Shown here piece by piece: positions 1,546 to 22,344 of a DNA stretch of 22,344 nt; position 1 is the stretch's first letter; each line of letters opens with the position of its first letter. The DNA is from a virus. The stretch lies in the IMG/VR virus record IMGVR_UViG_3300000596_000003, positions 1 through 22,344 of that record. One strand, written 5' to 3'. Position numbers and translations under genes: made by a program. The notes beneath the pieces are model-generated. The model saw only the letters and a list, made by a program, of their open reading frames with translations, had not been told where the DNA came from and searched no databases.

Positions 1546-4500
1546 CTACTTGCCAGCCTCGTAGTCGGCGCGTGCCTTGGCGAGGCTCATCTCTCTCAAC
1601 AGGTTGCCGAAGAACTGCTGGGCCAGGTCCCCTCGTCCCCTGGTCGGGTAAAGCTCCGAGGGGCGGTTACGGAGGATGCGAACTTCGGGCAGCCCGGTGA
1701 CCACGTCGCGAACGATGTCGTAGGCAAGACCGCCTGCGCTGCTCTTCGGAACTGCTTGGCCTCGTGAGGTGATGTTCTGACCGGCCCTGAAGGATGCGGT
1801 GATGAAAGGATTGAGCGATCCGACCAGGCGAGTGGCATTCGCTGGCGTTCCGCCTGGGAGAAGCGCGCTGAGACCGGAGACGACATCTGTCGCCGAGTTG
1901 TAGGGAACCAGAGGCCGGGTGGCAAGGATCCGTTGCAGGTCTCCTTGTGGCTCGCCGATCGCGACGCTGCCTTGCAGGTAGCTGGGGAGCGGGCCACCGA
2001 ACTGGTCGTTCGCCATTTGCTCCCCGACCTGGCCGATCTTGTAGAGGATGTTCGCCCGCAGCGGGGCGTCGAAAGGCATCTTCGCGGTGATCCTCAGGAT
2101 CTCCCTGAACCAGGCGTAGAAGGGGAAGACGTTGCGGATCGCGTTTGACTCCCTCGGCGAGAGCGAGAGGAAGTTCCCGAGCGCGTCGTTGATCTCGCGG
2201 TTGACGAACATGTTCGTCTGCGGGTCCTTCAGCCCCGTCTCCATCGCCGCCTGCCAGGAGCGTGTCTGCTTCGGCATCGCCAGGTAGGCGTCGCGCACCT
2301 CCTTCGACTGCCTGAGAACCCGCTCCGCTGTCCAGCGACGCAAAAACGATTCGGTCGTCTTGTCGATGTGCGGCAGCACGTTGATCACCTTGGTCACGGC
2401 CATCGCGTTCCACCTGATCAGCGGGTGCGCGGTTCGTGCCCACTGAGGGAGCGACTCCCCGGTGGTCGTCCCGAGGAAGGTTCCGCTCTTGCGCTGCTGG
2501 GGCGCGTACTTGGCGACTATTTCATCCGACAACCCAAAGCCGCCATCCTCCGCCATCCCGACCGCTCTGCGCGCGGCGCGGAGGCCCTTGGTCTGGGAGA
2601 TCGCCCCGAGCAGGGCCTCCGCCCCGCGCGGACCGGCGTTGCGGACAGTGGCGAGGATCGTGTTGCCGACGATGTTCGAGAACAGCCAGGGGATGCGCAC
2701 CTTCAGCACCAGCGCCCGCCACACGTCCATGATCTGGTTGAAGACCTGGTTCCACTGGCTGCGGGTCACCTTCAGGTCAGCGCCCAGCACCTTCGCGAAG
2801 CGCTCCGGCACCATCAGGTACTGGCCGCGCGCGTTCCGGGCTATCTGCTCCGGCGCTTCCCGGAGGAGATTGCGGTTCGGGCTGCTGAACCCCTCCGGGA
2901 ACAGGTCGGGGAACATCCTCTCAAGGCTCTGGATCTGCGTTCCGGCCGCAGTACGCTCGGGTGGGAAGTACTGTCCTTTCTTGGTTCGCACCCACTCGTA
3001 GCCACCGGCTAGCTCCCCACCGGGGGCGGGCACGGCGAGCCTCAGCACCTCGTTGTAGAGGTCGCTGGTCGCGTCGTTGCGGGCTGCGCGCAGGAAGTCA
3101 GGCCCCAGCTTGTCGATGTGCATCGCGACCCTGCCTGCGAGGAAGAGCCTGCCGGTGTTCGTTGGCTCCTCGGCACTGGGCGGGGCCAACCCTCGTGCCC
3201 GCGCCCTGCGGTAGATGTTCGGCTTCTTCGCCATCACGTCCGGCATGTAGAACGGCATCGGGCGTCCCGCAGCGGCGATCTCCTGCCGAAGCTCCTTCGC
3301 GCTCGGACCCCCGAAGACGGTGTTGACGCCCGCCCGCACCCTCTCCCCTGCCGCCTCCAGCCCCGCCTGCATGTCGAGCAACTCGTTCAGCAACTCTCGC
3401 TGGGTCCGCAGCGCCGAGATCCGCGCCTCGCGGGCAGCACCGATCCTCTGTCCCGAGGCAACCTGCTGCCTGGAGAGCACCGAGGCGTCGATCACCTTCT
3501 GCTGCAACTCCATCTCGGCGATCAATGCGTTCTGGTAGCGGGTGAACGCCTCCCCCGCAGCGTCGTAGACCTCGCCCAGCGTCCGCATCCGGGCATCCTC
3601 GATCGAGGCCTGGGCCGCTGCCCGTGCCGCCTGCTGGCTCTCGGCGGCCGGGGCCGCCCTCTCGGAGATGGTGACCTTGGTCTTCGGCGCGCTCCACGGC
3701 CGCACGTCCTTGATATCGAAGACGACCATGTCAGGCCCGTACTCGATCCCGGTGAAACCAGCCTTGGAGAGCCTCCGGTTCACCTTCGTCTTCGTCTCGG
3801 TCAGCGCCTTTGAGTGCAACAAGTTGTCGAAGCTCTTCGGGGTGAACGAGCCGGTGTGTGTCGCTTTCGCGAGCAGGAAGTACAGTTGCTTGGTTGTCAG
3901 GTCGCGCCTGTTGGCGGCGAGCAGCTTGTCGAGCTTCTTGGCGATCGCCTTGTTCTCGATCGCCTTCTGCACCCGGGCGAGAAGATCGGCGCTCACCGTC
4001 TCGTCTCCGAGCCGGAAGAGCGTCGAGCGGTCGACCTGATGGGTGGTAACCCCCTCACCCCTCATGCCCATGCGCGGGAGCAGCCCCTCGTCACCAGCTT
4101 CGGTCGTGAGGTGGACGCCCCGTCCGAGCCATTCGCGCCCGGTCACGTCCCCGGTGTGCAGCGGCCCAGCGGGAACGATCGGGGTGGCGTGGTAGGCGGT
4201 AACGATGTCCTCGCCCAGCCCCTCTGCTGCCGATGGGATCTCCTCGGGCGCTTTCGCTCCCGCCTTCGCGAACGCCTCGGCCATCGCTGTCCCGACCGTC
4301 GAGGGGCCAGCAGCGCTCTCGGGTGTGATCCCGACCTCTTCGGCGTAGACGCCAAGGTCGGTGTTCATCAGCCGGTCGAGTTGCGCGCTCAGACCCTCCC
4401 ACTCGGCCCTGGTCATATCGACCTGACCGGCGAGATCCTCCAGATCGATGGCCTCCTTCTCGCTGCGGGCCAGTTGTTTTGAGACCCGGCGCGACGCGGC

Positions 4501-5784
4501 GAGCGCCGATTTGAGTTCGACCTTCCCGGCCCTGCGGCCCTCCCTGACGATCCTCTGCTTGCCCTTCTCCAGCTTCGTCAGCGTCGAGTCGATCTTGTCG
4601 AGATGCTTCCGCGCCGCCTCCGGGGTCAGGAAACGTGCGCCACGAGCGATCCGCATGTGCGTGAGCGGGGCCATGTTGGCGGCGATCGGACTCAGCCATT
4701 CGCGCTTGACCTTGATCGTCGTCATGTAGTCGTCCAGGGCGTGCCCCTTGGCGTTCGCGTCCCACATCTTCTGGGTCGGGTTGCGGTAGTACTCAAGGAT
4801 CTTCGGGTCATGCAGGAAGGTGAGCGTCGCCTGACTCGTCAGGTCTCCGACCGGCAGGATGCCCCGCCACCAGTTCACATCCCGCTCCATCGGCAGCGAG
4901 TTGACCAGGTCGAAGGCGACTTTCTCCTTGCGGCTCATCCGGTTGTAGGAAACCCGGTAGTCATGGAACGCTGCCGACGACTCGTGCGCCAGGAGCTTCT
5001 GCTGGTAGGTATCGGTCAGCGCCCTCGCCGCGCGCGACTGCTCACCGAGCAGAGGAGTCGCCGACGGGAGCCTCTTCAGGACGGCGTTGGTTGCCACCAT
5101 CCGGGCAGCCCGGTAGCCCGTTCTCGGCAGGACGCGCCTAGTCACCGTCTGGAGCGACGTGGGGTCCGCTCTGACATCTATCGTCAGCCGCGGCCCCTGG
5201 TGTCGACCGGTGACGAGCGCACCAAGGCGCTCCGAACCCGTCACCGCCCTGCCCTCTGTGGCCGCTGCCCTCGCTGTCAACCCCAGCGCGCCAGCCCTCC
5301 CGGCGACCGGAAGAACGACCGTCAGGACATCCAGGCCCGTCCCGATCGGGTCCTCCCCCATCCGATGCAGGGTCTCCCCGAAGTCACCGTGAAAAGCGGG
5401 GCCGTACTTGTGCTCGTACGACTTCGCCATCGGCCTGAAGGCTTTGCGGTAAAGCTCGGAGTCGAGAACATCGCCGCCGTAGAGCACGCCATGAGGGCCA
5501 GCCGTAATGTCGTGGTAGGTCGCCTTGCCGAGCGTCGAGCCGATCGCGGCGGCCCCGCCAGCTATCCCGGAGATCGCGCTTCCGGCCTGACCGAACGCCC
5601 CCCTGATCCCACCGATGACACCGCTGGAAGGGAAAGGGTCGAAAACGTCTGTCAGCGTCGCGCCGCTCTGCTTCGCTTTCGTCTTCGCGTAGGCCGAGCC
5701 GCCCCCACCAGCCGAACGAGCCTTGACGACCGCGCCACCACCGCTCTTTGCCTTGGACTTCTGATACGCAGAAGGTTTAGCCAC
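1546..5784 (-). CDS. Large internal virion (ejection) protein with ADP-ribosyltransferase-like segment
   Basis: The product has 1412 residues and is the last gene of the late operon, after two other probable internal proteins; size and position match gp16-like ejection proteins of podoviruses. The start is GTG in an 8-nt overlap (GTGGCTAA) with the preceding gene. Residues 1-50 are basic and low in complexity (Gly, Ser, Ala, Lys). Residues 56-90 and 150-175 are Gly/Ala-rich with hydrophobic stretches that could enter a membrane. Residues 395-475 form a charged likely coiled coil. Residues 526-698 resemble an ADP-ribosyltransferase domain (separate entry). A second coiled coil lies at about 715-820. 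The 850-1412 part is helical and includes the hydrophobic stretch IPWLFSNIVGNTILATV (1031-1047). No transglycosylase motif was seen. Internal location and injection are inferred from size and gene order. Confidence 0.75.
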   Translation of the reverse strand: MAKPSAYQKSKAKSGGGAVVKARSAGGGGSAYAKTKAKQSGATLTDVFDPFPSSGVIGGIRGAFGQAGSAISGIAGGAAAIGSTLGKATYHDITAGPHGVLYGGDVLDSELYRKAFRPMAKSYEHKYGPAFHGDFGETLHRMGEDPIGTGLDVLTVVLPVAGRAGALGLTARAAATEGRAVTGSERLGALVTGRHQGPRLTIDVRADPTSLQTVTRRVLPRTGYRAARMVATNAVLKRLPSATPLLGEQSRAARALTDTYQQKLLAHESSAAFHDYRVSYNRMSRKEKVAFDLVNSLPMERDVNWWRGILPVGDLTSQATLTFLHDPKILEYYRNPTQKMWDANAKGHALDDYMTTIKVKREWLSPIAANMAPLTHMRIARGARFLTPEAARKHLDKIDSTLTKLEKGKQRIVREGRRAGKVELKSALAASRRVSKQLARSEKEAIDLEDLAGQVDMTRAEWEGLSAQLDRLMNTDLGVYAEEVGITPESAAGPSTVGTAMAEAFAKAGAKAPEEIPSAAEGLGEDIVTAYHATPIVPAGPLHTGDVTGREWLGRGVHLTTEAGDEGLLPRMGMRGEGVTTHQVDRSTLFRLGDETVSADLLARVQKAIENKAIAKKLDKLLAANRRDLTTKQLYFLLAKATHTGSFTPKSFDNLLHSKALTETKTKVNRRLSKAGFTGIEYGPDMVVFDIKDVRPWSAPKTKVTISERAAPAAESQQAARAAAQASIEDARMRTLGEVYDAAGEAFTRYQNALIAEMELQQKVIDASVLSRQQVASGQRIGAAREARISALRTQRELLNELLDMQAGLEAAGERVRAGVNTVFGGPSAKELRQEIAAAGRPMPFYMPDVMAKKPNIYRRARARGLAPPSAEEPTNTGRLFLAGRVAMHIDKLGPDFLRAARNDATSDLYNEVLRLAVPAPGGELAGGYEWVRTKKGQYFPPERTAAGTQIQSLERMFPDLFPEGFSSPNRNLLREAPEQIARNARGQYLMVPERFAKVLGADLKVTRSQWNQVFNQIMDVWRALVLKVRIPWLFSNIVGNTILATVRNAGPRGAEALLGAISQTKGLRAARRAVGMAEDGGFGLSDEIVAKYAPQQRKSGTFLGTTTGESLPQWARTAHPLIRWNAMAVTKVINVLPHIDKTTESFLRRWTAERVLRQSKEVRDAYLAMPKQTRSWQAAMETGLKDPQTNMFVNREINDALGNFLSLSPRESNAIRNVFPFYAWFREILRITAKMPFDAPLRANILYKIGQVGEQMANDQFGGPLPSYLQGSVAIGEPQGDLQRILATRPLVPYNSATDVVSGLSALLPGGTPANATRLVGSLNPFITASFRAGQNITSRGQAVPKSSAGGLAYDIVRDVVTGLPEVRILRNRPSELYPTRGRGDLAQQFFGNLLREMSLAKARADYEAGK
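3691..4209 (-). other. ADP-ribosyltransferase-like domain within ejection protein
   Basis: Residues 526-698 of the 1412-residue protein run from TAYHATP (Y531, H532, T534), through GRGVHLTTE (554-562), to AGFTGIEYGPDMVVFDIKDV (675-694). This order, a YHxT opening, a G-x-h-h-T-x strand and a closing G-hydrophobic-x-GI plus VVFD strand, is the pattern of the ART domains of phage polyvalent proteins. In such enzymes the first His contacts NAD. The usual Tyr after the second strand is not obvious and the catalytic acidic residue cannot be assigned, so activity is uncertain. The domain lies between two coiled-coil stretches. Confidence 0.55.
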
Positions 5785-7663
5785 TCGGCGGCCTCGGAGT
5801 TATGTGCGGGAAGATCTCGGCCAGTGCGGCGCGCAAAACCTCCTCCGAGAGCGACGTTGTCGCCCTGGCGAGATCGAGGATCTCCCAGTAGGAGGCCCCG
5901 TCGTCCTGTGCCTCCTTGACGTAGCGCTTCGCAAACGCGATCTCCGCCTTCTTGTTCGGGAACGGCCTGCCGTACAGCCCGACGGCGTACTCCGGCTGGG
6001 AGTTCAGAACTGTCCTGACGCGAGCCTTCCACTGAGCGGTCTGCGGCCCGAGCGCGTAGCCGTCGATGAGCGCCTGGTTGTAATCCTTGACCTGGGCTAC
6101 AGGTGGTTTGCTCCCCCACTGGAGAGCCTCCGGGTCCCAATACTCGAACTTGCTCCCGACCTTCCTCGACCTCGGTGGAGCGTTCCCCGTCCAAACCTTG
6201 ACGGCCTCGTTCAGATCCTTGATCTGGCCTACGGTGCCACCCGAAGCAGCGCCACCTTTCCCGGTAGTAGGGGCCTTCTTCGAGATGATCGTCCGTGTGC
6301 CGTCGATGGCGGTGCGCACCTTGTTGCCGTTCGCATCCGTCGTTATCCCATCGGAGACGACCGTCTGCTCCCAGTTGTCCGGGTTGATGATGACTCGGCG
6401 ACCGTAGGCGTCCTGGTAGGAGATCTTCGCCCCCGGCTTCACCGTCGGCTTCCTGATCCAGGTATAGGTGTTGCTGGCGGGATCGAAGGCCATGATCCCA
6501 CCACCGGAGGTGGTTATGTTCTGGATCTTCGGGGGCTTGACATCTCCGGGGAGCACGTCGACCCCTGTTCCGTCTGCCCTTATCCCACGCCAGACGCCGG
6601 TGTCGTCCTTGTAGACCCTGGAGTAGGTCACGTCCGGCTTGACGTTCCCGGGAAGACGATCGACTCCCCCGTCCGCTCTGATCCCCCAAACAACTCCGGT
6701 GTCGTCCTTGTAGGTCCTGGAGTAGATGGAGGTGGAACTCGCTCCGGGCTGGACGAGCCTGGTGAGCTTCCCGGTCGTTGTGTTCAGCGAGAAGTAACCC
6801 GTCTTCGAGTCGCCGATGATTTTGATGTCTGCCTGCTGCGCCTGAGACGCCTTCAGCGCCTGGTCGACCGCCTCTGCTCCGTACTTGAGAACAAGGCCTG
6901 GGATCTGAGCAGCGAGGTTCGCGCGCTGGGCGGAGAACTCCCTGTCGGCCTCCTGCTGGGCGCGGGCGAGTGAGGTGACCGCCTCGCCACCCATCGCTGC
7001 GATCTGTCCCGGCATCATCTGGGCGGCAGCGCCCGCAGCCGCGCCCGTGACGTTCAAGCCTTGCGCCTCAAGTCCGGCCCCGAGCCAGCCGAGCGCCCTG
7101 CCGACGGGTGAGTTGTCGACGGGCGGCATCGTCCCGCCGGTCAAGTTCATCGTGGCGGCATTCGCCGCGTTGGTCGCCGCGTCGCCGCTGGCGAGTGTCC
7201 CCCCGAATCCCCTGCCGAGCAACGCATCAAGCTCCGCCGCCTGGGTGTAGCCCGCCTGGACCTGGGGGACGATTCGCTCCAGGAGCGGTGTCAGCGCCCC
7301 GTAGTAGCCCTGGATCGCTTTCTGCCCCGCGACCGTGTTCGCCGCCGCGATCCGCTGCGCGTCGGCGATCTTCTGCTCCTCGGGAAGCGTGGCCGCCTTC
7401 ACCTGCCCCCAGATGAAATCCGACTGTGCCTTCGTGTAGCCCGGGATCTGCGGGCCAAGCAGGCTGGGAACGCTGGAAACGCTGGGCGTTACGGTTGTGA
7501 CCGGCGCTGGTTTGCTTCCCACCAGCGACGGCCCTCCCGACGCTCGGAAGGCTCGCTGCCTGTCGGCCTGATCCGGGGGCGTCCAGGTGGCGGAAGACCT
7601 CGGAGTGGGGGTGGCTTTCGTCTTTGTCTTCTTCTTCGGAGGGGTGTAGTCGGGGAGTGGCAT
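5777..7663 (-). CDS. Internal virion protein (ejection protein), 628 residues
   Basis: The protein lies between two other probable internal proteins and is about the size of podoviral gp15-like ejection proteins, although no direct similarity was recognised. Residues 1-60 are Pro/Lys/Thr-rich and disordered, starting MPLPDYTPPKKK, close to the first residues of the preceding gene product. Residues 75-280 are Ala/Gln-rich helices (for example AQRIAAANTVAGQKAIQ). Residues 285-460 are beta-rich, with a tandem YKDDTGV repeat at 315-381 and similar short units after it. Residues 480-620 are helical, with KDLNEAV and KDYNQAL segments. The ATG start follows the previous stop by 3 nt; the ribosome binding site is weak. 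The end overlaps the next start by 8 nt. Confidence 0.65.
   Translation of the reverse strand: MPLPDYTPPKKKTKTKATPTPRSSATWTPPDQADRQRAFRASGGPSLVGSKPAPVTTVTPSVSSVPSLLGPQIPGYTKAQSDFIWGQVKAATLPEEQKIADAQRIAAANTVAGQKAIQGYYGALTPLLERIVPQVQAGYTQAAELDALLGRGFGGTLASGDAATNAANAATMNLTGGTMPPVDNSPVGRALGWLGAGLEAQGLNVTGAAAGAAAQMMPGQIAAMGGEAVTSLARAQQEADREFSAQRANLAAQIPGLVLKYGAEAVDQALKASQAQQADIKIIGDSKTGYFSLNTTTGKLTRLVQPGASSTSIYSRTYKDDTGVVWGIRADGGVDRLPGNVKPDVTYSRVYKDDTGVWRGIRADGTGVDVLPGDVKPPKIQNITTSGGGIMAFDPASNTYTWIRKPTVKPGAKISYQDAYGRRVIINPDNWEQTVVSDGITTDANGNKVRTAIDGTRTIISKKAPTTGKGGAASGGTVGQIKDLNEAVKVWTGNAPPRSRKVGSKFEYWDPEALQWGSKPPVAQVKDYNQALIDGYALGPQTAQWKARVRTVLNSQPEYAVGLYGRPFPNKKAEIAFAKRYVKEAQDDGASYWEILDLARATTSLSEEVLRAALAEIFPHITPRPPSG
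6521..6721 (-). repeat. Tandem coding repeat, two units of about 33 codons
   Basis: Residues 315-347 and 348-381 of the 628-residue protein align as SR(T/V)YKDDTGV, W-GIRADG or WRGIRADG, then VD-LPG(N/D)VKP. The nucleotides are also similar, for example the stretch encoding YKDDTGV in both copies. Each unit resembles a beta-hairpin with a strand-turn-strand pattern, so the pair may form part of a small propeller or fibre-like stalk. That reading is inference. Confidence 0.75.
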
Positions 7664-7666
7664 CAG

Positions 7667-8506
7667 CTATCCGATGTTGAGCGCATTGAGGATTCCCTCC
7701 GGGATCTTCCCGGTCAGACCTAGCTGACGAAGGGCTGCTTGCTGCGCGCCCTGGCCCAGGGTTGCGAGTCCCTCCTGCTGGGCGGTGTTGTAGGCGCTCG
7801 CGATCTGGGTGAGCTTCTGGAGGAGCGCTTGAGCGCCGCTGTAGCGTCGCGCCTGGTCTTCGTAGGCGAGGTTGCGCAGCCCCACGCCGGTAGCGCCGGA
7901 GCGGAACGTCCCTCTCGCCCCCATCTGGTCGAGCCAGTTACCTCTTGCGAAGCGGTTCTGGCGGTTGTAGCCGCCGACCGTCGAGAGTTCCCTGGCAGTC
8001 AGGTCCTGGGCTGCCGCCAACGTGTTCGGGTTCTGGGCGGCGTTCATCAGGATGCCGTAGAGCGGATTAGTGGGATCGAGTCCGAGGTCGCGCGCGGTCT
8101 GCGCGAAGTCGGGAATCTCGCCCCAGTTCCCGAACGCCTGCCCGAACCCTGTCCCTGCTGCCGCCCCCGCAGCCGCGTTACGCGCGTTCACCTGCGCCCT
8201 GGTCATCTGGAAGATCGGGTCGTTCTCCAGCGACCAGTTGTAGTTCGGCTCGGGAAGAGCCGGGGGGTTGTAGTTCAGGCTGTACGGGTCGTCGGCATTG
8301 TAGTTCCCGCCCGGGTTGTACCCAGGGGGGTCGTAACCGTAGGGGTAGCTGGGAAGACCCGGACCCGGCCCGAGATCAGCCTTGTAGCCGGTCGTGTTCT
8401 TGGCGGTTTGCCCTCCAAAACCGTAGAAACCGCCCAGGGACGGCGCTGAGGAGGTCGGGGTTCCCAGTTTCTTCGGCGGTGACGGCGGTTCCCAGGGGAG
8501 GGGCAT
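7667..8506 (-). CDS. Internal virion protein, 279 residues
   Basis: This is the first of three probable internal (ejection) proteins. It begins MPLPWEPPSPPKK, similar to the MPLP-PP-KK opening of the next gene product. Residues 40-92 form a Tyr/Pro/Asn/Gly-rich stretch (PGYNPGGNYN, SLNYNPPALPEPNYN) that is probably disordered. Residues 95-279 are predicted helical and Ala/Gln-rich, with ARGTFRSGATGVGL (197-210) and a following helix, a pattern seen in small phage internal core proteins. AAGGGAGA lies about 5 nt before the ATG. The function, helping DNA pass out of the capsid into the cell, is inferred from neighbours and composition. Confidence 0.6.
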   Translation of the reverse strand: MPLPWEPPSPPKKLGTPTSSAPSLGGFYGFGGQTAKNTTGYKADLGPGPGLPSYPYGYDPPGYNPGGNYNADDPYSLNYNPPALPEPNYNWSLENDPIFQMTRAQVNARNAAAGAAAGTGFGQAFGNWGEIPDFAQTARDLGLDPTNPLYGILMNAAQNPNTLAAAQDLTARELSTVGGYNRQNRFARGNWLDQMGARGTFRSGATGVGLRNLAYEDQARRYSGAQALLQKLTQIASAYNTAQQEGLATLGQGAQQAALRQLGLTGKIPEGILNALNIG

Positions 8507-8517
8507 AGATCTCCCTT

Positions 8518-8709
8518 CTATGCTTGCTTGGCGAGGCCCAGTGCGACCAGCACATCAGCAATGTCCTGGACGGTCGGGGTTGTCGGGATCGTCGGGAGCA
8601 TGTCCAGGTCGCGGGCGTCTTCGACAAAGCGGTGCAGCCACCAGAGGTACTCGGACGGGAAGCTGGACGGGTTCCTCAGGTAGGCGGTGATCTCGTCGCT
8701 GACGCTCAC
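8518..8709 (-). CDS. Small hypothetical protein between nozzle and internal proteins
   Basis: The 63-residue product starts with GTG in a 4-nt overlap (GTGA) with the end of the tail-nozzle gene, which makes translation coupling likely. It has an aromatic segment SEYLWWLHRFVEDARDL at about 19-35 and a C-terminal TVQDIADVLVALGLAKQA helix. No transmembrane segment or enzyme motif was seen. A small tail-associated or chaperone role is possible from position, but nothing in the sequence fixes it. Confidence 0.6.
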   Translation of the reverse strand: MSVSDEITAYLRNPSSFPSEYLWWLHRFVEDARDLDMLPTIPTTPTVQDIADVLVALGLAKQA

Positions 8710-10208
8710 TGCTTCAGCCTGTTCTCTTCGAGGGCCTGGAACTCGGTCTCGATCGCGTGAAAACGAGTTTCGGAGCTACCGCCTATCTGCTTGATCCTGA
8801 AGGCGACACCAGACGACTGGAAGCCAAGCTCTCTGCGTGCCCGCTTGTAGACATCCGACTGCTCGAAGCTGCCGATCGTCGTGTAGTTCACCCCGCAAGG
8901 GTCGAGCAGGTACCCGGCCTCAAGCACGGGCGCTCCGACGTGAGAGTGCATGTCCCAGTTCGCGAACAGCCACTTCCACTGCTGAAGCGAGAAAGACATC
9001 TGCGTTCTGCCACTCGCAGACTGCCGCGCCCGGTAGAAGGGGGTCTCGAAAAAAGGCTGGATCGTGACGCCGTTCGCGTCGGCCTCGTCCGCTTGTTCGT
9101 GCGGATGGAAGAGCAGGTAGAGCGAGGCGACCCGGCCCTCGTTCGAGAGGCCCATGTAGACCTTCTCCGCCGTCCTTCCGGGGACGCGCATGAAGCAGAA
9201 CCCGGGCATGTTCTGCATCCGGTACCAGAACCCGCGCAGCAGGTCGTAACAGAAGCAGTCGAGCAGTTGGCCGTTACTCGTGATCGTGATGATGTAGGTG
9301 TCGTGGACGACCCCGGCGGCGAAACGGTAGGTGTCGTCCATGTCGCGCAGCGTCGTGAACCAGAGCGATGAGATCCCCCCGTCGGCGGTCAGGTTCTTGA
9401 GCGCGACCCCGTCTGTCTGGTAGACGCCCGTGAGGTCGGCCCAGATGACGGTGTCGTTGTACTTGACGACCGTGTGGGCGTTGACGCAGCCGACCTCGAA
9501 CGGAGCATCGGCGGTCAGGTCACCACTGGTGGTCGGACTGGCCGGGGTCGTCCCTTTCAGCCGTGAGGTCGAGCGGAAATGAAAGACGAGGATCGCGTTG
9601 CGCATCGCTGCGAGAGCGACCACAGGATCGGAGAAGTCGTACCAGGACTCGGTCGGCCAGACCTCCGCCGTCCCCAGGGCGCTGAACCAGACCCGGCCGG
9701 GATTCGCGAGGCTGTTCCCGAGCACGGTGCGGTCGTTCCAGACATCGGCGAACAGCGCCGGGGGCGGGCTGCCAGCCAGCGTGGCAACGGGAGTTATTCC
9801 GTCCCAGGACATCGGGGGATCGACACCGCTGTCTCGGGGGATGACCACCAGCCAGGAGTCTGCGTCCTTGCGGTGGACGACCGGGTTCTGCGAGATGGTG
9901 TCTGTACCCGTCCAGGAACCAATCAGGCTCGAAGTCGTGTCGGTGAACTCGTAGATCTCGCGCGCAAGCGTGACAGCGACGTTCTTGAACCCGGCTCCGT
10001 AGTAGAACGTCCTGCACATCCCCATGATCATGCTGCCCCCGAGATCGGGGGAGGCGTAATACCAGGCCGCCCGCTTGCGCAGCGGAGCGCCGAGCGACTG
10101 CGGGACGAAATCGACGCAGTTCCAGAGCGCCTGGTTTCGGATGTTGTCGCGGGGATCGTCCTGTCGCATTCCGGCGAAGACGGTTTCGAGCGTGGTCGGG
10201 AATGCCAC
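8706..10208 (-). CDS. Tail nozzle / DNA-stabilisation protein (P22 gp10-like)
   Basis: The 500-residue product is beta-rich, with many W/F/Y-containing strands and few helices. Residues 172-192 (RVWFSALGTAEVWPTESWYD) match the style of the propeller-like hub proteins that close podoviral tails: a residue run of R-hWFSxxG followed by W and a D-F segment. The N-terminus MAFPTTLETVFAGMRQDDPR fits the family's start. In P22 and SU10 such a protein sits below the adaptor and forms the tail tube or nozzle. The length is close to P22 gp10 (472). The gene starts with GTG directly after the TAG of the adaptor gene, and that pairing supports the call. T7 gp12-like tail tube B is the alternative name. 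Confidence 0.65.
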   Translation of the reverse strand: MAFPTTLETVFAGMRQDDPRDNIRNQALWNCVDFVPQSLGAPLRKRAAWYYASPDLGGSMIMGMCRTFYYGAGFKNVAVTLAREIYEFTDTTSSLIGSWTGTDTISQNPVVHRKDADSWLVVIPRDSGVDPPMSWDGITPVATLAGSPPPALFADVWNDRTVLGNSLANPGRVWFSALGTAEVWPTESWYDFSDPVVALAAMRNAILVFHFRSTSRLKGTTPASPTTSGDLTADAPFEVGCVNAHTVVKYNDTVIWADLTGVYQTDGVALKNLTADGGISSLWFTTLRDMDDTYRFAAGVVHDTYIITITSNGQLLDCFCYDLLRGFWYRMQNMPGFCFMRVPGRTAEKVYMGLSNEGRVASLYLLFHPHEQADEADANGVTIQPFFETPFYRARQSASGRTQMSFSLQQWKWLFANWDMHSHVGAPVLEAGYLLDPCGVNYTTIGSFEQSDVYKRARRELGFQSSGVAFRIKQIGGSSETRFHAIETEFQALEENRLKQ

Positions 10209-10889
10209 CTAGACCCCTGTCTGCGATGGTGACCCGACGAAGCGCCTGCGGTGCCCGACGACAGCGGGAGAGAGCCTTCTCCCTCCACGGTGCAGGGCCG
10301 CCCGTTTCATCCGGCCAAGCTCCTCACGGTAGAGCGTCCTGTAGCTCGACCCGTTCTCAGAGTACTTGTCGTTGATGTACTGCCCCGCCTGGAAGAGCAT
10401 GAAGTACTCGATCACCTTCTGCCACTCCCAAGGAAGATCGTTCGGTGTGTCGGTATCGGCGACGAGCGGCAAGGGACGCTTCACGAAGTAGACGAAGAGA
10501 CTGTCGCCCTCGACGGGAGCCGGGTAGATCATCAGCCGGTCGCCCCCATTCACGGCATAGCACTGAACCGGGGAGGAGGTCTGGCCCTGAGAGCCGATCC
10601 GGTAGTCGAGGATCTCCTGCGGGGAGACGCGCTCGATCCGGTAGGTCTGATCGCTAGTGGCGAGGTAGACCTCGTTGATCGCGATCATCGTCGGGTCGAT
10701 CGTGTAGTCGGAGCTACCGGCGATGAGCCGCATCGACGCGCAATTGATCTTGATCCGGCTCTCGGCCATCACCTCCAGGTAAGCCTGGTTCGCCCAGTCG
10801 TTCATCAACGTCTGGTCTTTCGAGCCGGTCGTGTTGTCAAGACCCATCTTGGCCGCTACCTGAGTCCGAAACTGAGCGAGTGAGGTCAC
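10209..10889 (-). CDS. Head-tail adaptor / connector protein
   Basis: The protein has 226 residues. A longer frame begins at 11048, but the GTG at 10889 is preceded by AAGGAGG with 4 nt between, and the upstream codons are low-quality and overlap the neighbouring membrane-protein gene. The sequence has a helical N-terminal part (LAQFRTQVAAKMGL, LMNDWANQAYLEVMAESR), a beta-rich middle (RLIAGSSDYTID, RLMIYPAPVEGDSLFVYFVK) and a C-terminal helical part with EWQKVIEYFMLFQAGQY. This order is typical of podoviral adaptors (P22 gp4 / T7 gp11 type), which bind under the portal. The next gene encodes the nozzle, as expected for a tail module. Sequence alone gives moderate support. Confidence 0.6.
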   Translation of the reverse strand: MTSLAQFRTQVAAKMGLDNTTGSKDQTLMNDWANQAYLEVMAESRIKINCASMRLIAGSSDYTIDPTMIAINEVYLATSDQTYRIERVSPQEILDYRIGSQGQTSSPVQCYAVNGGDRLMIYPAPVEGDSLFVYFVKRPLPLVADTDTPNDLPWEWQKVIEYFMLFQAGQYINDKYSENGSSYRTLYREELGRMKRAALHRGGRRLSPAVVGHRRRFVGSPSQTGV

Positions 10890-10893
10890 GACC

Positions 10894-10900
10894 CCTCCTT
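10894..10900 (-). promoter_or_regulatory. Ribosome binding site fixing adaptor start
   Basis: AAGGAGG lies 4 nt before the GTG at 10889. No comparable site precedes the longer candidate start at 11048. Confidence 0.8.
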
Positions 10901-10929
10901 GATGGTTCGCTGTCGGCCTAAGTGGTTGC

Positions 10930-11139
10930 TCACGGCTCCTCCTCTTGTTTCGGCCAAACTTCGGCCTCTGTGGTGTCAACGTCGAAGCGCTGCCGCTCGA
11001 CAAACCATCCGAAGCGGGCGACACGCACCTGCCGGTCACGCGCCACAAGTTGGGAGACGAAGACGATCACGACCACGGCCGCGAACACGACCACGATCAG
11101 TCCCGCGAGCGCTTTGCCGTCGAGGGAGACGGCGATCAC
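10930..11139 (-). CDS. Small single-span membrane protein, holin candidate
   Basis: The 69-residue product has one strong membrane segment at about 9-32 (ALAGLIVVVFAAVVVIVFVSQL) after a short N-terminus, then a basic and finally acidic tail ending KQEEEP. The GTG start overlaps the stop of the previous small gene (GTGA). It follows the endolysin gene and another tiny membrane protein, so a role in lysis is reasonable; single-span holins with this topology exist. A membrane-anchored structural or spanin-like role cannot be excluded, although a Gram-positive host would not need a spanin. Confidence 0.6.
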   Translation of the reverse strand: MIAVSLDGKALAGLIVVVFAAVVVIVFVSQLVARDRQVRVARFGWFVERQRFDVDTTEAEVWPKQEEEP

Positions 11140-11300
11140 GTCGCTCTCCGGTCGCGCTGGGCCTGGATGTCTTTGCCCTCTAGGATCGAGAGGCGCTCGC
11201 GGAGCTTGCTGATCGCGATCGCGAGGTAGATGATCCCGAGGATCTCAAGGCTGTTGATCGTGATCAGCGCCTCGTCGGGAATGGTGGTGAGGCCGATCAT
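11136..11300 (-). CDS. Tiny membrane protein, holin or antiholin candidate
   Basis: This 54-residue gene is shorter than common length cut-offs but is well supported. Its ATG overlaps the endolysin stop (ATGA), its own stop overlaps the next start (GTGA), and no other frame fills the gap. The product has a hydrophobic stretch at about 12-31 (LITINSLEILGIIYLAIAIS) followed by a charged tail rich in Arg, Glu and Gln (KLRERLSILEGKDIQAQRD) that is likely a short amphipathic helix. With the downstream 69-residue membrane protein it could form a two-component holin system. The assignment rests on context and the membrane segment. Confidence 0.65.
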   Translation of the reverse strand: MIGLTTIPDEALITINSLEILGIIYLAIAISKLRERLSILEGKDIQAQRDRRAT

Positions 11301-12211
11301 GGCTCCGCGACGCGGACAAAAACTGTTCCCTGAGCCTGGGTGTCGCGGGTGCGGCGCATGACCTCGCCGCCGTTCGAGTTGTCGCTCGTAGAGGTGTTTC
11401 CTTCTATGCAGGTGAACTGGGAGGGCTTCGTTCCGCCCCAGGACTCGAACAGGCCGATGTGGTCGTAGGTGCCGTCGCGGCTCCAGTCGAAACAGACGAG
11501 GTCCCCCGGCATCGGGGACGATGGGACGCTCAGCCCGTTACGGTTCGCTTTTGCGTCCCCCACGACGTAGGGCACGTAGGCGTAGGCGACTCCCTTGGCG
11601 AACGAGGGCGAGCCACCAGCCTCGACCTCGTACCAGTAGCTGACGGCCATAGCGCACCACGGCTGATAATCCTGCCCATACCAGCTACCGAATGTCGAGT
11701 GGTTGGTTCCAGGGGGATTCTCTTTGTAGCCCAGCCAGCCGATCGCAGCCTGCAAGGCGCGCTCGCGCGTGGTTCCCTTGACGGGTTTGTTGAACTCGTA
11801 GTAGGCCTCCGCGATCAGGTTCGCGGCGGTCACGTCCATCGCCATCTGGCCCGCGTTCGGGAGTCCCTTCGGGATCTTGATCGAGCGCAGCGTGTTGAAG
11901 GTCTTCTCCCCGACCCAGCCGCTGGGGTCGAGCTTCTGCTGGCGCTGGATGCCAGCGATGCCCGAGTCGGCAACGTTGCCTCCCGCTTTGCCGTGGGAGA
12001 AGGCATTGCTGAATGTGCGGTCGAAGGCCGAGGCGGGACCCGGCCAGCGACCCGCCCGCCAGACGGTGCGCTTGTACGCCTCGATATCAGCCCCATCTTC
12101 TGACGGCTCCTTGCCCTGCTTGTTCGCGTCAGGAGGATAAATCGGCCTCGGGAAGCCAGGAACGGCGACCATTGGTCCGCCCGGGTAAGCGCTCTCGTAC
12201 CATTCAGTCAC
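11297..12211 (-). CDS. Endolysin: peptidoglycan-binding plus CHAP-like peptidase/amidase
   Basis: The protein has 304 residues. Residues 40-112 look like a helical peptidoglycan-binding unit (GIAGIQRQQKLDPSGWVGEKTF). Residues 145-300 look like a CHAP or NlpC-type cysteine peptidase: C186 in QPWCAMAVSYW, H251 in TYDHIGLFE and E270/N272 in TCIEGNTS give the Cys-His-Glu/Asn order, with PMPGDLVCFDW just before the His as is usual. It would cut the cell-wall peptide or amide bond. There is no signal peptide, so export would depend on a holin. The GTG start is in an 8-nt overlap with the upstream gene; a GGTGA box precedes it. Confidence 0.85.
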   Translation of the reverse strand: MTEWYESAYPGGPMVAVPGFPRPIYPPDANKQGKEPSEDGADIEAYKRTVWRAGRWPGPASAFDRTFSNAFSHGKAGGNVADSGIAGIQRQQKLDPSGWVGEKTFNTLRSIKIPKGLPNAGQMAMDVTAANLIAEAYYEFNKPVKGTTRERALQAAIGWLGYKENPPGTNHSTFGSWYGQDYQPWCAMAVSYWYEVEAGGSPSFAKGVAYAYVPYVVGDAKANRNGLSVPSSPMPGDLVCFDWSRDGTYDHIGLFESWGGTKPSQFTCIEGNTSTSDNSNGGEVMRRTRDTQAQGTVFVRVAEP

Positions 12212-12407
12212 TCGTCACCATCGCCTGGTTGCCATCCTCGCTCGCGGTCATCTGAGCGAGTGAGGCCTCGAACTCGATCACCGCTCGCGCAGCCTCCTCC
12301 GCGTTGAAGACCGTGATCACCTGGGCTACCCGCTCGGCCACGATGCGGCCGTCCTGGTCGCGCTCGATGGCGACCGGCTGGAGCAAATACTTGTATGGCT
12401 CGATCAT
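12204..12407 (-). CDS. Small hypothetical protein between fibre and endolysin
   Basis: The 67-residue product starts with ATG in a 1-nt overlap (TGATG) with the fibre stop, and its end overlaps the endolysin start by 8 nt. The sequence suggests a strand-helix arrangement (YKYLLQPVAIERD, AERVAQVITVFNAEEAARAVIEFEASL). No membrane segment or known motif is visible. Position suggests a fibre-associated factor or chaperone, but this is a guess. Confidence 0.6.
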   Translation of the reverse strand: MIEPYKYLLQPVAIERDQDGRIVAERVAQVITVFNAEEAARAVIEFEASLAQMTASEDGNQAMVTSD

Positions 12408-16871: not shown

Positions 16872-18041
16872 CTAACCGGTCACGCCCTTGATCACCGCGT
16901 GGCAGGACTCCTGCGCGAACTGCAAGGAGAACTCCGTGCGGTACTCGTGCGTGACCTCGTCCGCGTCGTTTGCCTGCCGGTTGCGCAGAAGCTGCGTGTT
17001 CCGGTTGCGGAGCGGACGAAGCTGGACGTAGTCCATGTCGATCAGGAACGCCCAGCTTCCGTACTGGCTGCCGGTCGCGCTGAAGTCGTTCCACTCGCGC
17101 TTGACGACAACCGGGATGCTCCAGCCGTAAGCGCCGGAGATGTACCCGTCCACCTTCGCGCCGAACTTGCGGTCATCGACCGAGGGCGGGTTCCAGGCCG
17201 ACTTGAGGAAGCCGGAGATCGCCCTTGCAACGAGCGGTGAAGCGAACAGGACCTTGTTCTTCGAGCCGTGTGCGAGGTCGGCCTGAAGGTAGGTGTCGAA
17301 CAGGACGTGCGTCAGCGCGCCTGCCGGGTTGTGGACGTTGGTCGCGATGAACTCGACCGCTCCACCGCAGTAGCCGATGGAGTTCGGGGCAGCGGTGGTG
17401 AAGGAGCGGGCACCCCAGAACAGGGTCTGCTCGATCGCCCGCTTGTGCTCCACGAGCTTCTTCACTTCCTCCTGCATCGGGGCGGGGCCGCCGTAGACCT
17501 CGATCACCGATTCGGTGCCGGTGAAGCCGAACGGGTCGCGCTGGATCTGGGTGTAGTTGTAGCCCAGGACCTTCTTGGTGATGTGCCGCACCCCGAGCGT
17601 CGCACCCTGCGGGGCGGCGTTCGAGACGATCAGCAGGTCGGAGATACCGGCTGCTGCCGTGCCGATGATCAGGCCGATCCCGCGCGTGACCGTGAGCACG
17701 TCGCCCGCGATCGAGTCGACGCGGAACGCTTCGCCGGTCAGCGCGACCCGGACGATGTCGCGGGGCCGGAAGTAGGCCCCCTGCCCGGTCGTGACCGTGA
17801 TCGAGGTTGCGACGTTGGTGATCGCGCCGGTCGTCGCCGACAGACGCGGGAAAAGCTGGTCTTCGAGCCAGTTGATCTGCTCTCTGACCGCCTGGTTCGA
17901 CCCGAGTTGCATCAGCATCGTCGTGAACTGAGACTCGTCCGGGTCGAGCATCTTGATCTGGTTGTCCATGTCCACGACGTTCTCGTTGGAGAGCGGGACA
18001 GTGGTGTCCACCAGACCGGTAGCAACTGCGACGTTTGCCAT
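16872..18041 (-). CDS. Major capsid protein, SU10 family
   Basis: The 389-residue protein lies after the scaffold gene and has the features of the SU10 major capsid family (HK97-type fold): an N-terminal arm, then the early segment LDPDESQFTTMLMQLGS and REQINWLEDQLFPR (53-66) containing the W-x-x-D/E signature, and beta-rich middle sections such as ITVTTGQGAYFRPRDIVRV. The C-terminal half contains the long helix EEVKKLVEHKRAIEQTLFWG. GGAG precedes the ATG by 7 nt. It is flanked by a 17-bp hairpin upstream and a terminator-like hairpin downstream. SU10-type capsids are known from podoviruses such as SU10 and phiEco32. Confidence 0.85.
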   Translation of the reverse strand: MANVAVATGLVDTTVPLSNENVVDMDNQIKMLDPDESQFTTMLMQLGSNQAVREQINWLEDQLFPRLSATTGAITNVATSITVTTGQGAYFRPRDIVRVALTGEAFRVDSIAGDVLTVTRGIGLIIGTAAAGISDLLIVSNAAPQGATLGVRHITKKVLGYNYTQIQRDPFGFTGTESVIEVYGGPAPMQEEVKKLVEHKRAIEQTLFWGARSFTTAAPNSIGYCGGAVEFIATNVHNPAGALTHVLFDTYLQADLAHGSKNKVLFASPLVARAISGFLKSAWNPPSVDDRKFGAKVDGYISGAYGWSIPVVVKREWNDFSATGSQYGSWAFLIDMDYVQLRPLRNRNTQLLRNRQANDADEVTHEYRTEFSLQFAQESCHAVIKGVTG

Positions 18042-19073: not shown

Positions 19074-19336
19074 GCTGCTTCCTCCTTGGGTCTGCTCTTG
19101 GCGAGATCGCGTTCGAGCGTTCTTGCGGCCTTGTCGGGGTATCGCACTGCTGCCAGCAGTCCGGCCCAGTAGCCGCGCTTGTACTCAAAGTCGTCGAAGG
19201 GGTGGCCGGTGGTCATCATCGTCCGGGCCAGGGCGGTGGAGTAGTCGAGGTACAGGGCCTCGATCTCGGTTTTTAGCTCCTGGAAGGGAAGGTAGCTGGC
19301 GAGCGCCTGGATCTTGGCGGCGCGCTCTGCGTCCAC
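19070..19336 (-). CDS. Small conserved protein between portal and scaffold
   Basis: The 88-residue product starts at GTG, sharing one base with the portal stop (TAGTG). It is helical (AAKIQALASYLPFQELKTEIEALY) and has the segment FEYKRGYWAGLLAAVRYP near residues 50-67, an F/Y-x-R-G-x-x-x-G-L pattern seen in small proteins next to podoviral portals. The function of these proteins is not established. A helper in portal or scaffold assembly is plausible from position. Confidence 0.65.
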   Translation of the reverse strand: MDAERAAKIQALASYLPFQELKTEIEALYLDYSTALARTMMTTGHPFDDFEYKRGYWAGLLAAVRYPDKAARTLERDLAKSRPKEEAA

Positions 19337-21180
19337 TACTGGTTCACCGGGCCACCCGTGGTTGCGCCCATCCGCTGGAGGGCTGCAACCGGGGACTGGG
19401 AGAAGGCATTGGAGGGGGAGTTCACGTCCGTTGCCTGCGGGGCACTAACGCCCCCTCCCGGTGCTTGTGCCGCCGAGGCAGATGGGGGCGCACCGGGAGG
19501 AAGCTGCTGCATGTTCGGCAAGACCGGCGCGAGCGTGTAGAAGGGCGCGGTGTCGGTGATGTCGAACGATTCGAGGTAGCGGTCCATGAACGCCTTCAGG
19601 TTGAGCGGCGTCTTCGACTGCGCGAAAGGCAGCGCGGAGGAGACCGCGACCTGGAGCATCGCCTGCGCCTCGGCGCGGCGCTCCTGGCGCATCAGCGACT
19701 CGTCCATCGAGGCGAGGGCGAGGTGGTAGCGGCCCTGGATCTCCATCGGGGTGATCCGGATCATCTCCTGCTCGCCGTCGGCCCCGAGTTGGGATAGGTA
19801 GCGGTCGTTGCGGATGAACTGCTGGTTCATCGCGATCCACTGCTCGCCGACCCGGTTGTAGGCCCAGGTGTAGTTCATCTTCTTGGCCGCGATCCGCCGC
19901 TGCGCGAGCGTGGTGAAGATGCTCGCTGCGGTGGCGGTGTTGTTGTCCAACTGTGAGGAGTCGCCGCCCAGCAGCGGCATCCCGCCGGAGATGTTCTGCA
20001 TGTCCTGCTTGATCTCCGACTCTGCGCGCAGGGCTAGCTCGGCGGTGATCGGCGGTGTCTCCAGGAACTTGACCTGGTTTACGTCGTCGACGAGCCAGCG
20101 CTCGCCGGGGGCGAAGACGTACTCGTCCGGGTCGTCAACGTCGGAGCGGATGATCGCGATCGCGTTGTTCAGAAGCTGGAGGTTGTCGAGGCGCTGGTTC
20201 TGGAGCGTCCAGAGCATCTCCTGCAAGTCCTGGATCACCTCGACCTCGCTGATCCCCGGGATGCGGAACAGGTCGGGCATCGAGGAGGTGACGACGAACG
20301 GGTAGCCGCCGTGCCAGAACGGGTTCGGCTTCGCGAGGCCGCCGGGGGTCAGGCAGACGGCGCGGTTCCCGATCGTGACCACCCAGATCTCGCCTTCGCT
20401 GTAGAACCAGTGCTCCAGCACCTCAACCTGGTTTTTGGCCCGGTTGACGTTGAAGAGTTCGTTCTCGCGCCGGGTCAGCGCGCCCGAGTAGTCCTTGGTG
20501 TCGGAGAGATCCTTGACGTTCGCGTACACGCCCGCCGCTTCCAGTTGTCGCAACTCGTCGAGCGAGTACCAGCAGCGGTGGGTGACCCGCATCGACTTCT
20601 CAAGGCTGGTCGCTGCTTCGTGCCAGAAGAAGTCGCGCACATCGACAACCTCCATCGTCGGGTCGTTGTGGAAGATCTCGGTTCCCTCGACCGCGCCCAG
20701 GCTCGGCATCGTGATCCCCTCGATGTCGGTCGGGACCTGCCTGACCCCGAGCCTGCGGGTCGTCCCTTCCGAGTAGCGCCAGTAGTTCTTGGCGACGGTC
20801 AGTCCGGCGATGAAGCCCTGCATCGCGAACGGGCGCTGCTTCTCGGAGAACTTGTCGATGTCCTGCTGGTAGGCGAGGAGCGCCTGCATCTTCTTGGCTC
20901 CATGGAGGTCTGCTGGCTGGTCGAAGCGGGGGCGGGCCTTGACCCGCCACTGCGGGTTCGGGTCGAGCGCCGAGGCGATCATCGTCTCGATGATCTGAAG
21001 GACGTACTTGGGGGCCTGCTTGTTGTTCCAGGTCTGGGCTTCGGAGCGCTGCTCGATCACGCCCCGGTAGGCGCGGTAGCGGCGGTCGACATCCTCGGCG
21101 AAGCTGTCGTGGGCTTTCGAGTCGCGCTCGAACGCGGCCATCACCCTGTTGACGGACTCAGCTTCGGAGCGTTTGCTCAC
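19336..21180 (-). CDS. Portal protein
   Basis: The protein has 614 residues, within the normal range for podoviral portals. It starts with helices (NRVMAAFERDSKAHDSFAED), then QAPKYVLQIIETMIASALDP, a wing region with beta strands (GEIWVVTIGNRAVCLTPGG), an extended stretch with FRIPGISEVEVIQDLQEMLW, and the helical stem/crown region including ATAASIFTTLAQRRIAAKKMNYTWAYN. The C-terminus is Pro/Gly/Ala-rich. The order portal-small protein-scaffold-capsid is the standard head module, which supports the call. The start is GTG in a GTGA overlap with the preceding gene. It forms the twelve-subunit DNA gate at one capsid vertex. Confidence 0.85.
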   Translation of the reverse strand: MSKRSEAESVNRVMAAFERDSKAHDSFAEDVDRRYRAYRGVIEQRSEAQTWNNKQAPKYVLQIIETMIASALDPNPQWRVKARPRFDQPADLHGAKKMQALLAYQQDIDKFSEKQRPFAMQGFIAGLTVAKNYWRYSEGTTRRLGVRQVPTDIEGITMPSLGAVEGTEIFHNDPTMEVVDVRDFFWHEAATSLEKSMRVTHRCWYSLDELRQLEAAGVYANVKDLSDTKDYSGALTRRENELFNVNRAKNQVEVLEHWFYSEGEIWVVTIGNRAVCLTPGGLAKPNPFWHGGYPFVVTSSMPDLFRIPGISEVEVIQDLQEMLWTLQNQRLDNLQLLNNAIAIIRSDVDDPDEYVFAPGERWLVDDVNQVKFLETPPITAELALRAESEIKQDMQNISGGMPLLGGDSSQLDNNTATAASIFTTLAQRRIAAKKMNYTWAYNRVGEQWIAMNQQFIRNDRYLSQLGADGEQEMIRITPMEIQGRYHLALASMDESLMRQERRAEAQAMLQVAVSSALPFAQSKTPLNLKAFMDRYLESFDITDTAPFYTLAPVLPNMQQLPPGAPPSASAAQAPGGGVSAPQATDVNSPSNAFSQSPVAALQRMGATTGGPVNQ

Positions 21181-21551: not shown

Positions 21552-22344
21552 TTAGGCGAGCGGCGGTCCGCCGCGCGGGTCCGTCGTGCCAAGCATGTCA
21601 ACGTGGACCGGGTCGGGTTGGCCGTGGTAGAAGCCGGGGACGTTCCCGGAGCGAAGGCCGAAGCGCCCAACGACCGGCTGGAGCGCGATCCCGAGCGGGA
21701 TGCGCTGCCCGTTGATGATCGCGTAGCCGTCGATCGCGTGTCCGGTCAGGTGGTTGGAGCGCGGCACTCCGCCAACGGCCTTGTTGTGGGCGGGGCTGCG
21801 GTAACCGGAGGTGATCTGGATCTCGGTCGCACCGACCGCCTTGGCCGCGTCGGCGACGAGCGCCGCGAAGACCGGGTCGATGCCGGTCGCCTCGCCGGTG
21901 AAGGAAACCTTGCCCTGCGCCTTCGGCGCGCTGTAGCCGCTCGTGACCGGGAAGCTGTAGCCGCCGCCCGACCAGAGCCTGAACGCGGACTGGAGTTCGG
22001 GGTCGGAGGCGAGGGCGTAGGGGTTACCGGAGGCGAGCGCCTTTCGGATCGCGCTGAAGTTCGACTGCGAGAACATCTTCGCGAGCGCGCTCGTTCCCGC
22101 CTCGAAGGAGGGGTAGCTCTGGACGCCCGCCCTGTTCGTGCCGCGGCTACCGCCGACCGGGAGCGTCGTCCCGAGCAGGTTGAAGCGGTCGATCTCCTGC
22201 GGGACGCCCTCGCGTCGCGCCCAGGCACCGAGAAAGGCCAGGTTCTGCGGGGTGGTCGGCAACCCCAGCTTGTTGAGGACGGTCGAGAAGTAGCGGCTGT
22301 TGGATCCGTCTGAGGGTTGAGAGTACTGATCTGTCGAGTACTGG
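21552..22344 (-). CDS. Peptidoglycan hydrolase: lysozyme-like domain plus M15 peptidase, 5' end outside window
   Basis: The frame runs open to the right edge, so the gene is cut there; 263 residues are visible. A TTG at 22262 could be read as a start, but the 27 codons before it continue the first domain (FSTVLNKLGLPTTPQNLAFL), so it is not chosen. The first domain has the ALxAW-xxEG style helix and the NLLGTTLPVGGS and GVQSYPSFEAG segments of actinophage lysozyme-like domains. The last 110 residues have SGYRSPAHNKAVGG, SNHLTGHAIDGY and PDPVHVDM, the zinc-binding His, Asp, His of M15 peptidases. It probably cuts glycan and peptide cross-links, perhaps as a virion-associated lysin because it precedes the portal. 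Confidence 0.8.
   Translation of the reverse strand, partial: QYSTDQYSQPSDGSNSRYFSTVLNKLGLPTTPQNLAFLGAWARREGVPQEIDRFNLLGTTLPVGGSRGTNRAGVQSYPSFEAGTSALAKMFSQSNFSAIRKALASGNPYALASDPELQSAFRLWSGGGYSFPVTSGYSAPKAQGKVSFTGEATGIDPVFAALVADAAKAVGATEIQITSGYRSPAHNKAVGGVPRSNHLTGHAIDGYAIINGQRIPLGIALQPVVGRFGLRSGNVPGFYHGQPDPVHVDMLGTTDPRGGPPLA

What the first reader, a model, noticed from the sequence alone, without database searches (positions are those of the whole stretch)
3691..4209. ADP-ribosyltransferase-like domain inside a probable ejection protein
The segment has YHAT, GRGVHLTTE and a closing GI/VVFD strand in the order of ART domains of polyvalent proteins, lying between coiled-coil stretches of a 1412-residue internal protein. 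If correct, the phage would inject a host-modifying enzyme with its DNA, much as T4 injects Alt. The second catalytic residue is not visible, so it may be inactive or a diverged relative.
Basis: partly seen in the sequence, partly recalled or inferred. Interest (0 to 1): 0.78.

Follow-up and report, generated by a model that had tools for sequence, protein, structure and literature searches.

The report
Divergent ADP-ribosyltransferase-like domain in ejection protein
A short-tailed phage known only from metagenomic DNA appears to carry, inside a large protein probably shot into the bacterium with its DNA, a diverged relative of enzymes that tag host proteins with ADP-ribose; such injected tagging enzymes are known in other phages, and whether this one still works is open.

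Summary
Residues 526-698 of the 1412-aa protein (window 1546-5784, minus strand) carry YHAT, GRGVHLTTE and, about 110 residues on, LSKAGFTGIEYGPDMVVFD, in the order of ADP-ribosyltransferase (ART) domains. No Pfam, NCBIfam, PHROG or PDB-sequence profile matches. A motif-chain test built so that no motif was scored with sequences fetched through it gives 36.6 bits; none of 3000 shuffles (max 35.1) and none of 1218 other ORFs (max 29.1) reaches that. The fold stays undecided: AlphaFold gave low confidence (pLDDT 40 and 52).

The context fits an ejection protein. Portal, major capsid and adaptor genes are phage SU10 type, and this gene follows the adaptor, a nozzle-like gene and two further genes. 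Relatives share its N- and C-terminal parts but lack the segment. In Saffermanviridae cyanophages the large protein at the same gene position also carries an ART-like domain; GenBank names one "mono-ADP-ribosyltransferase-like".

The first histidine is present. The usual tyrosine is histidine, also seen in clear ART-PolyVal members. The usual aspartate is threonine. Activity is therefore open.

Verdict: a probable new, divergent member of a known kind (virion-carried phage ARTs), not a new kind.

The parts
1546..5784 (-). CDS of 1412 aa, GTG start, probable ejection (internal virion) protein carrying the ART-like domain
   Evidence: ORF listing; gene position after adaptor, nozzle-like gene and two further genes; N- and C-terminal parts conserved in related phages
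3691..4209 (-). ART-like segment, residues 526-698
   Evidence: motif-chain tests; HMM of cyanophage ART-like domains peaks at residues 624-691
4180..4203 (-). motif 1 VTAYHATP, residues 528-535; H532 at the place of the first catalytic histidine
   Evidence: alignments A5, A7, A8
4090..4131 (-). motif 2 WLGRGVHLTTEAGD, residues 552-565; H558 at the place of the usual tyrosine
   Evidence: ART-PolyVal members L208 and L222 have H here too
3781..3996 (-). helical stretch inside the domain, residues 597-668, including LTTKQLYFLLAKA
   Evidence: AlphaFold helices here in both low-confidence models; resembles TIKQAYALLDKA in Pf-WMP3 gp26, not tested for significance on its own
3733..3780 (-). motif 3 NRRLSKAGFTGIEYGP, residues 669-684; T678 at the place of the usual aspartate
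   Evidence: 23.7 bits in the crossed test; Arthronema virus TR020 has GVTGIE here
3703..3729 (-). motif 4 MVVFDIKDV, residues 686-694, closing strand; D685 just before it
   Evidence: weak by itself, 3.1 and 0.4 bits
4609..5484 (-). conserved N-terminal part, residues 101-392
   Evidence: matches residues 87-381 of the 1237-aa protein in L158
1552..3354 (-). conserved C-terminal core, residues 811-1411
   Evidence: E 3e-106 to L158; profile A4 (ten rows, window included) finds it in 15 of 50 related records, some of which supplied its rows
5777..7663 (-). 628-aa gene directly upstream, overlapping the start of the large gene; probable second internal protein
   Evidence: position; a 600-aa gene stands in the same place in L005; no family hit
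7667..8506 (-). 279-aa gene, probable small internal protein
   Evidence: position only; no family hit
8706..10208 (-). nozzle or tail-tube-like protein, 500 aa
   Evidence: phrog_511 E 4.9e-9; position after the adaptor
10209..11048 (-). SU10-type adaptor protein (longest ORF; true start may lie inside)
   Evidence: PF24175 E 3.8e-19
16872..18041 (-). SU10-type major capsid protein
   Evidence: PF17236 E 5e-40
19336..21180 (-). SU10-type portal protein
   Evidence: PF23899 E 4.2e-24

Best explanation
The segment is a divergent ADP-ribosyltransferase-like domain (this part alone: about 0.75) set into the middle of a large ejection protein of an SU10-type short-tailed phage. Most likely the protein is packed in the head, leaves it ahead of or with the DNA, helps to form the channel across the envelope with its conserved N- and C-terminal parts, and brings the ART-like domain to the host cytoplasm or inner membrane, where it binds NAD and modifies a host molecule early in infection. 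Shown here: motifs and their order, gene position, conserved flanking parts, absence of the segment in relatives. Inferred: ART fold, virion location, ejection, NAD binding, target, activity.
For: Crossed motif test, 0 of 3000 shuffles and 0 of 1218 ORFs. Cyanophage ART HMM peaks at the expected stretch. The ARTs aligned with it are genuine: seven of nine proteins scanned hit PF18760, four of them above its cut-off. SU10 portal, capsid and adaptor families; [quoted passage not shown] Large proteins at the corresponding position in Saffermanviridae cyanophages, after tail A, tail B and two internal-protein genes, hold ART-like domains. The unmatched middle is 418 residues here and 235 in L158, a difference of 183, close to the 173-residue segment. 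ARTs are reported as by far the commonest predicted protein-modifying enzymes of polyvalent phage proteins (PMC5512222).
Against: No family, PDB-sequence or BLAST match for the segment, and no close relative in viral or genome contigs. Both structure models are poor and the N-terminal half has almost no strand; Foldseek found nothing at E below 0.001. Two of the three usual active-site residues are changed. The large protein matches no known ejection protein. With the cyanophage motifs alone the score is not outstanding: 18 of 2000 shuffles and several ORFs equal or exceed it.
Confidence: 0.5

Rival explanations
1. The domain has the ART fold but is catalytically dead; it serves as a structural or NAD/ADP-ribose-binding module, or as a spacer within the ejection protein.
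For: Usual tyrosine is H558 and usual aspartate is T678; a single sequence with no close homologue, so constraint on the remaining residues cannot be judged.
Against: Clear PF18760 members L208 and L222 also have H at the second position, and the aspartate is also absent from L233 and L236 (P) and TR020 (T), so the changes recur among ARTs. D685 lies next to the closing strand and could stand in (inference).
Confidence: 0.25
2. The domain is an ART, but the gene product is a virion structural protein that stays in the particle and is not delivered to the cell.
For: No direct evidence of ejection; the closest proteins are known only from DNA.
Against: Gene position after adaptor and nozzle-like genes; SU10 releases five proteins at the corresponding stage (PMC9509320); a relative carries a peptidoglycan-binding domain at residues 78-109 of its large protein (L201).
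Confidence: 0.07
3. The motifs are a chance likeness in a helix-rich spacer; there is no ART domain.
For: No profile match at any threshold tried; low-confidence models that are mostly helical; cyanophage-only motif test p about 0.02.
Against: Crossed test p about 3e-4 with all blocks in the right places; 12-ART chain p about 8e-5 (partly circular); independent HMM peaks at the same stretch.
Confidence: 0.18

Closest known systems
ART-PolyVal (PF18760), Tox-ART-HYD2-like ARTs of phage polyvalent proteins (PMC5512222)
   Same: Order and spacing style of YHGT, GxGxYF/GxGFHL, a strand, GYDGI and VVFD; setting in a large protein encoded among virion genes; H at the second position is found in members L208 and L222
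   Different: Below detection by the Pfam model; A for G in YHGT, H558 for Y, T678 for D; a helical stretch of about 70 residues before the last motifs
Large proteins of Saffermanviridae cyanophages: Pf-WMP3 gp26, Pf-WMP4 gp32, Anabaena phage A-4L ORF27, Plectonema phage Pbo-yong3 (UVD33202.1, annotated mono-ADP-ribosyltransferase-like)
   Same: ART-like domain in a 1459-1717-aa protein that follows tail A, tail B and two internal-protein genes
   Different: No detectable homology outside the ART-like domain (tested with Pf-WMP3 and A-4L); their ART-like domains form a subfamily scoring 47-108 in a test where the window scores 20
T4 Alt
   Same: Head-packaged ART injected with DNA (PMC5512222, PMC9503650): a functional model
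   Different: R-S-E class ART in a separate protein; the window has H at the first position
SU10 ejection proteins gp20-24 (PMC9509320)
   Same: Same type of portal, capsid and adaptor; genes following the nozzle gene
   Different: No sequence match of the large protein to any phage record; I saw no ART domain reported for SU10 in the passages read

Membership tests
ART-PolyVal (PF18760) | Profile match above the curated cut-off | tested here: not met
   No match at E up to 10 for the segment or the protein; search of the record with PF18760 empty (whose controls also gave nothing)
ART-PolyVal (PF18760) | Ordered motifs of the ART core | tested here: met
   Crossed chain test, p about 3e-4
ART-PolyVal (PF18760) | Active-site histidine in strand 1 | tested here: met
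   H532 in YHAT aligns with H of YHGT in all ARTs
ART-PolyVal (PF18760) | Active-site tyrosine in strand 2 | tested here: not met
   H558; histidine also in PF18760 hits L208 and L222
ART-PolyVal (PF18760) | Active-site aspartate in strand 5 | tested here: inconclusive
   T678 at the GYDG aspartate; D685 and D690 nearby; strand assignment not established without a structure
ART-PolyVal (PF18760) | ART fold | tested here: inconclusive
   pLDDT 40.3 and 51.9; Foldseek viral library lists a PolyVal ADP-ribosyltransferase at E 0.7 and cyanophage ART-bearing proteins at E 0.08-0.4, none significant
Polyvalent phage proteins | Encoded among virion genes | tested here: met
   Same strand and cluster as portal, capsid, adaptor
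Polyvalent phage proteins | Several domains of disparate activity in one polypeptide | tested here: inconclusive
   Only the ART-like domain could be named
Ejection proteins of short-tailed phages | Gene position after adaptor/nozzle genes | tested here: met
   same order in cyanophages
Ejection proteins of short-tailed phages | Sequence homology to a characterised ejection protein | tested here: not met
   tblastn against 50,697 phage records, no match at E up to 1
Ejection proteins of short-tailed phages | Present in virions and released with the genome | not testable with these tools
   needs virions of a cultured relative
Alt/VIP2 ARTs | R-S-E active site | tested here: not met
   H532 at the first position; Alt/VIP2 uses R, S, E (PMC5512222)

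The most novel reading that the evidence does not exclude
Ejection proteins of unrelated short-tailed phages have a tolerated region that takes up different cargo domains, and ARTs were put there independently in SU10-type phages and in Saffermanviridae; the window's copy would be an altered (H-H) ART adapted to delivery through the ejection channel.
Probability: 0.2. Interest if true: 0.6.

Novelty: new member of a known kind. Interest (0 to 1): 0.42.

Why it matters
If right, injected ADP-ribosylating cargo extends to SU10-type short-tailed phages, in a form that current profile libraries miss. The cultured cyanophages found here (Pf-WMP3, Pf-WMP4, A-4L, Pbo-yong3) would let one test directly whether an ART-bearing large protein is ejected and what it modifies. 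The idea itself (head-packaged ARTs delivered early) is published, so the gain is reach and testability, not a new principle.

Tried and rejected
Single-protein searches for close relatives of the large protein and of the segment: nothing. Pfam, NCBIfam, PHROG, PDB sequence search: nothing for the segment; the weak names listed (Herpes_BLRF2, DUF7639, CmaX) are far below cut-off and taken as chance. tblastn of the segment in phages and plasmids at E up to 10: two microvirus hits and one Streptomyces plasmid hit, judged chance. Foldseek of the model: histones from PDB (an artefact of a helical low-confidence model) and no significant viral hit; its viral list was used only as a lead to the cyanophages, which were then checked by sequence. 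A first motif chain with a wrong minimum gap missed the last motif and was corrected; the gap was widened after seeing the window, although L217 and L223 have the same short gap. A cyanophage-only chain placed the window outside that subfamily, so I dropped the idea that it is a close relative of the cyanophage domain. Membership of the Alt/VIP2 class was rejected on the first residue.

Full report
The observation. The window is a virus record of 22,344 bases with late genes of a short-tailed phage on the minus strand. The large ORF 1546-5784 encodes 1412 aa. Flanking residues are rich in A, E, K, R, Q and L.

Curated libraries are silent on the segment: Pfam, PDB sequences, PHROGs, NCBIfam. 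tblastn in phages and plasmids gives only chance-level hits. No close relative was found in viral or genome contigs.

Comparison set. A DNA pattern modelled on YH[AG]T...GxGxHx in viral contigs gave 24 stretches, about half of them ART domains with a downstream GYDGI...VAFEP-like motif that the pattern had not asked for. A second pattern on the closing motif gave L233/L238 and L236, whose upstream sequence holds [WH]HGS and GxGLYF. Pfam names most of these ART-PolyVal: L208, L222, L224 and L233 above the cut-off, L211, L212 and L236 below it. The window aligns with them over the whole order of motifs.

Is it more than chance? A chain of five motif blocks from 12 ARTs scores the window 48.2 bits; 1000 shuffles reach at most 36.1 and 1218 other ORFs at most 31.1; known ARTs with their own row removed score 40.9 to 97.4. 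Because most of those ARTs were fetched through the window's own motifs, I crossed the design: motifs 1-2 were scored with sequences fetched by the closing motif or by other routes, and motifs 3-4 with sequences fetched by the opening motifs or by other routes. The window scores 36.6; 0 of 3000 shuffles (max 35.1) and 0 of 1218 ORFs (max 29.1) reach it, Gumbel p about 3e-4; no other protein of the window exceeds 18.1. The largest share (23.7 bits) comes from NRRLSKAGFTGIEYGP. An HMM of seven cyanophage ART-like domains peaks at residues 624-691, with the caveat that one unrelated ORF ties in score. With cyanophage motifs alone the window is not outstanding, so it is not in that subfamily.

Fold. 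AlphaFold on the single sequence gave pLDDT 40.3; with 13 aligned sequences 51.9, with a strand pair at about FTGIEY and MVVFD and helices before it. Neither model supports or excludes the ART fold. Foldseek gave no significant hit.

Setting. Portal, major capsid and adaptor match the SU10 families of Pfam, and a nozzle-like protein follows (phrog_511), then genes of 279 and 628 aa, then the large protein. [quoted passage not shown] Relatives found with portal and capsid profiles have homologous large proteins of about 930 to 2574 aa: the C-terminal core is shared widely and the N-terminal part (about 101-392) in the nearer relatives, while the middle is not conserved. In L158 the unmatched middle is 235 residues against 418 here, a difference of about the size of the ART-like segment; the 1013-aa relative in L005 is about 400 residues shorter overall. 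Other relatives carry other modules: DUF7178 in L170 and L193, a peptidoglycan-binding domain in L201. The segment thus looks like a lineage-specific insert.

Parallel. The weak Foldseek list pointed to cyanophage proteins. By sequence, Pf-WMP3 gp26 and A-4L ORF27 hold FHGTRV/YHGTRV, LGTAIYLT/GSGTYFS, GIDGV/GVDAL and a closing strand; relatives of the Pf-WMP3 domain occur in 18 phage records, and the protein of Pbo-yong3 is annotated mono-ADP-ribosyltransferase-like. Gene order is tail A, tail B, internal protein, peptidase or murein hydrolase, ART-bearing protein. Outside the ART-like domain, Pf-WMP3 gp26 and A-4L ORF27 show no detectable homology to the window's protein.

Active site. The polyvalent ART family is described with H in strand 1, Y in strand 2 and D in strand 5 (PMC5512222). 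The window has H532, H558 and, at the GYDG aspartate, T678. H at the second place occurs in L208 and L222, and non-D at the third in L233, L236 and TR020. Activity cannot be predicted either way.

Verdict. A divergent ART-like domain (about 0.75) in a probable ejection protein is the best reading; that it is delivered and active is about 0.5. Under the rules of membership it is not filed in PF18760, since the profile and one active-site residue were tested and not met; that it works like a delivered phage ART remains the leading but unproven idea. Virion-carried phage ARTs are published (PMC5512222, PMC9503650), so the finding is a new member of a known kind, of moderate interest.

Noticed in passing
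L162:2678-10399 (-), L170:752-8428 (+), L193:611-8035 (-): Homologues of the C-terminal core sit near the end of very large proteins (2475-2574 aa); L170 and L193 carry DUF7178, and L162 has a stretch DLFRAVHDVFGHAKEGVGF...ETRGQNSWVN without a Pfam name.
   Followed up: partly
L201:578-6670 (+), residues 78-109: A relative's large protein begins with a peptidoglycan-binding domain (PF01471, E 6.7e-6), fitting a protein that crosses the cell wall.
   Followed up: partly
L233:2-6292 (+): A 2097-aa viral protein with at least three ART-PolyVal domains and a RadC-like JAB domain.
   Followed up: partly
L239:21214-25701 (-) and relatives in 18 cyanophage records: ART-like domain without a Pfam match (Pf-WMP3 gp26, A-4L ORF27) in proteins annotated ParB-like partition nuclease, tail protein or tail fiber protein; the annotations disagree and look unreliable.
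   Followed up: yes
window 12407-14704 (-): 765-aa probable tail fibre with many repeats of a motif like FGSAADTNLYRSAA.
   Followed up: no
window 21552-22343 (-) and 11297-12211 (-): Two cell-wall enzymes in one late cluster: an M15-type peptidase (E 1.9e-10) and a CHAP endolysin (E 1.4e-8).
   Followed up: no
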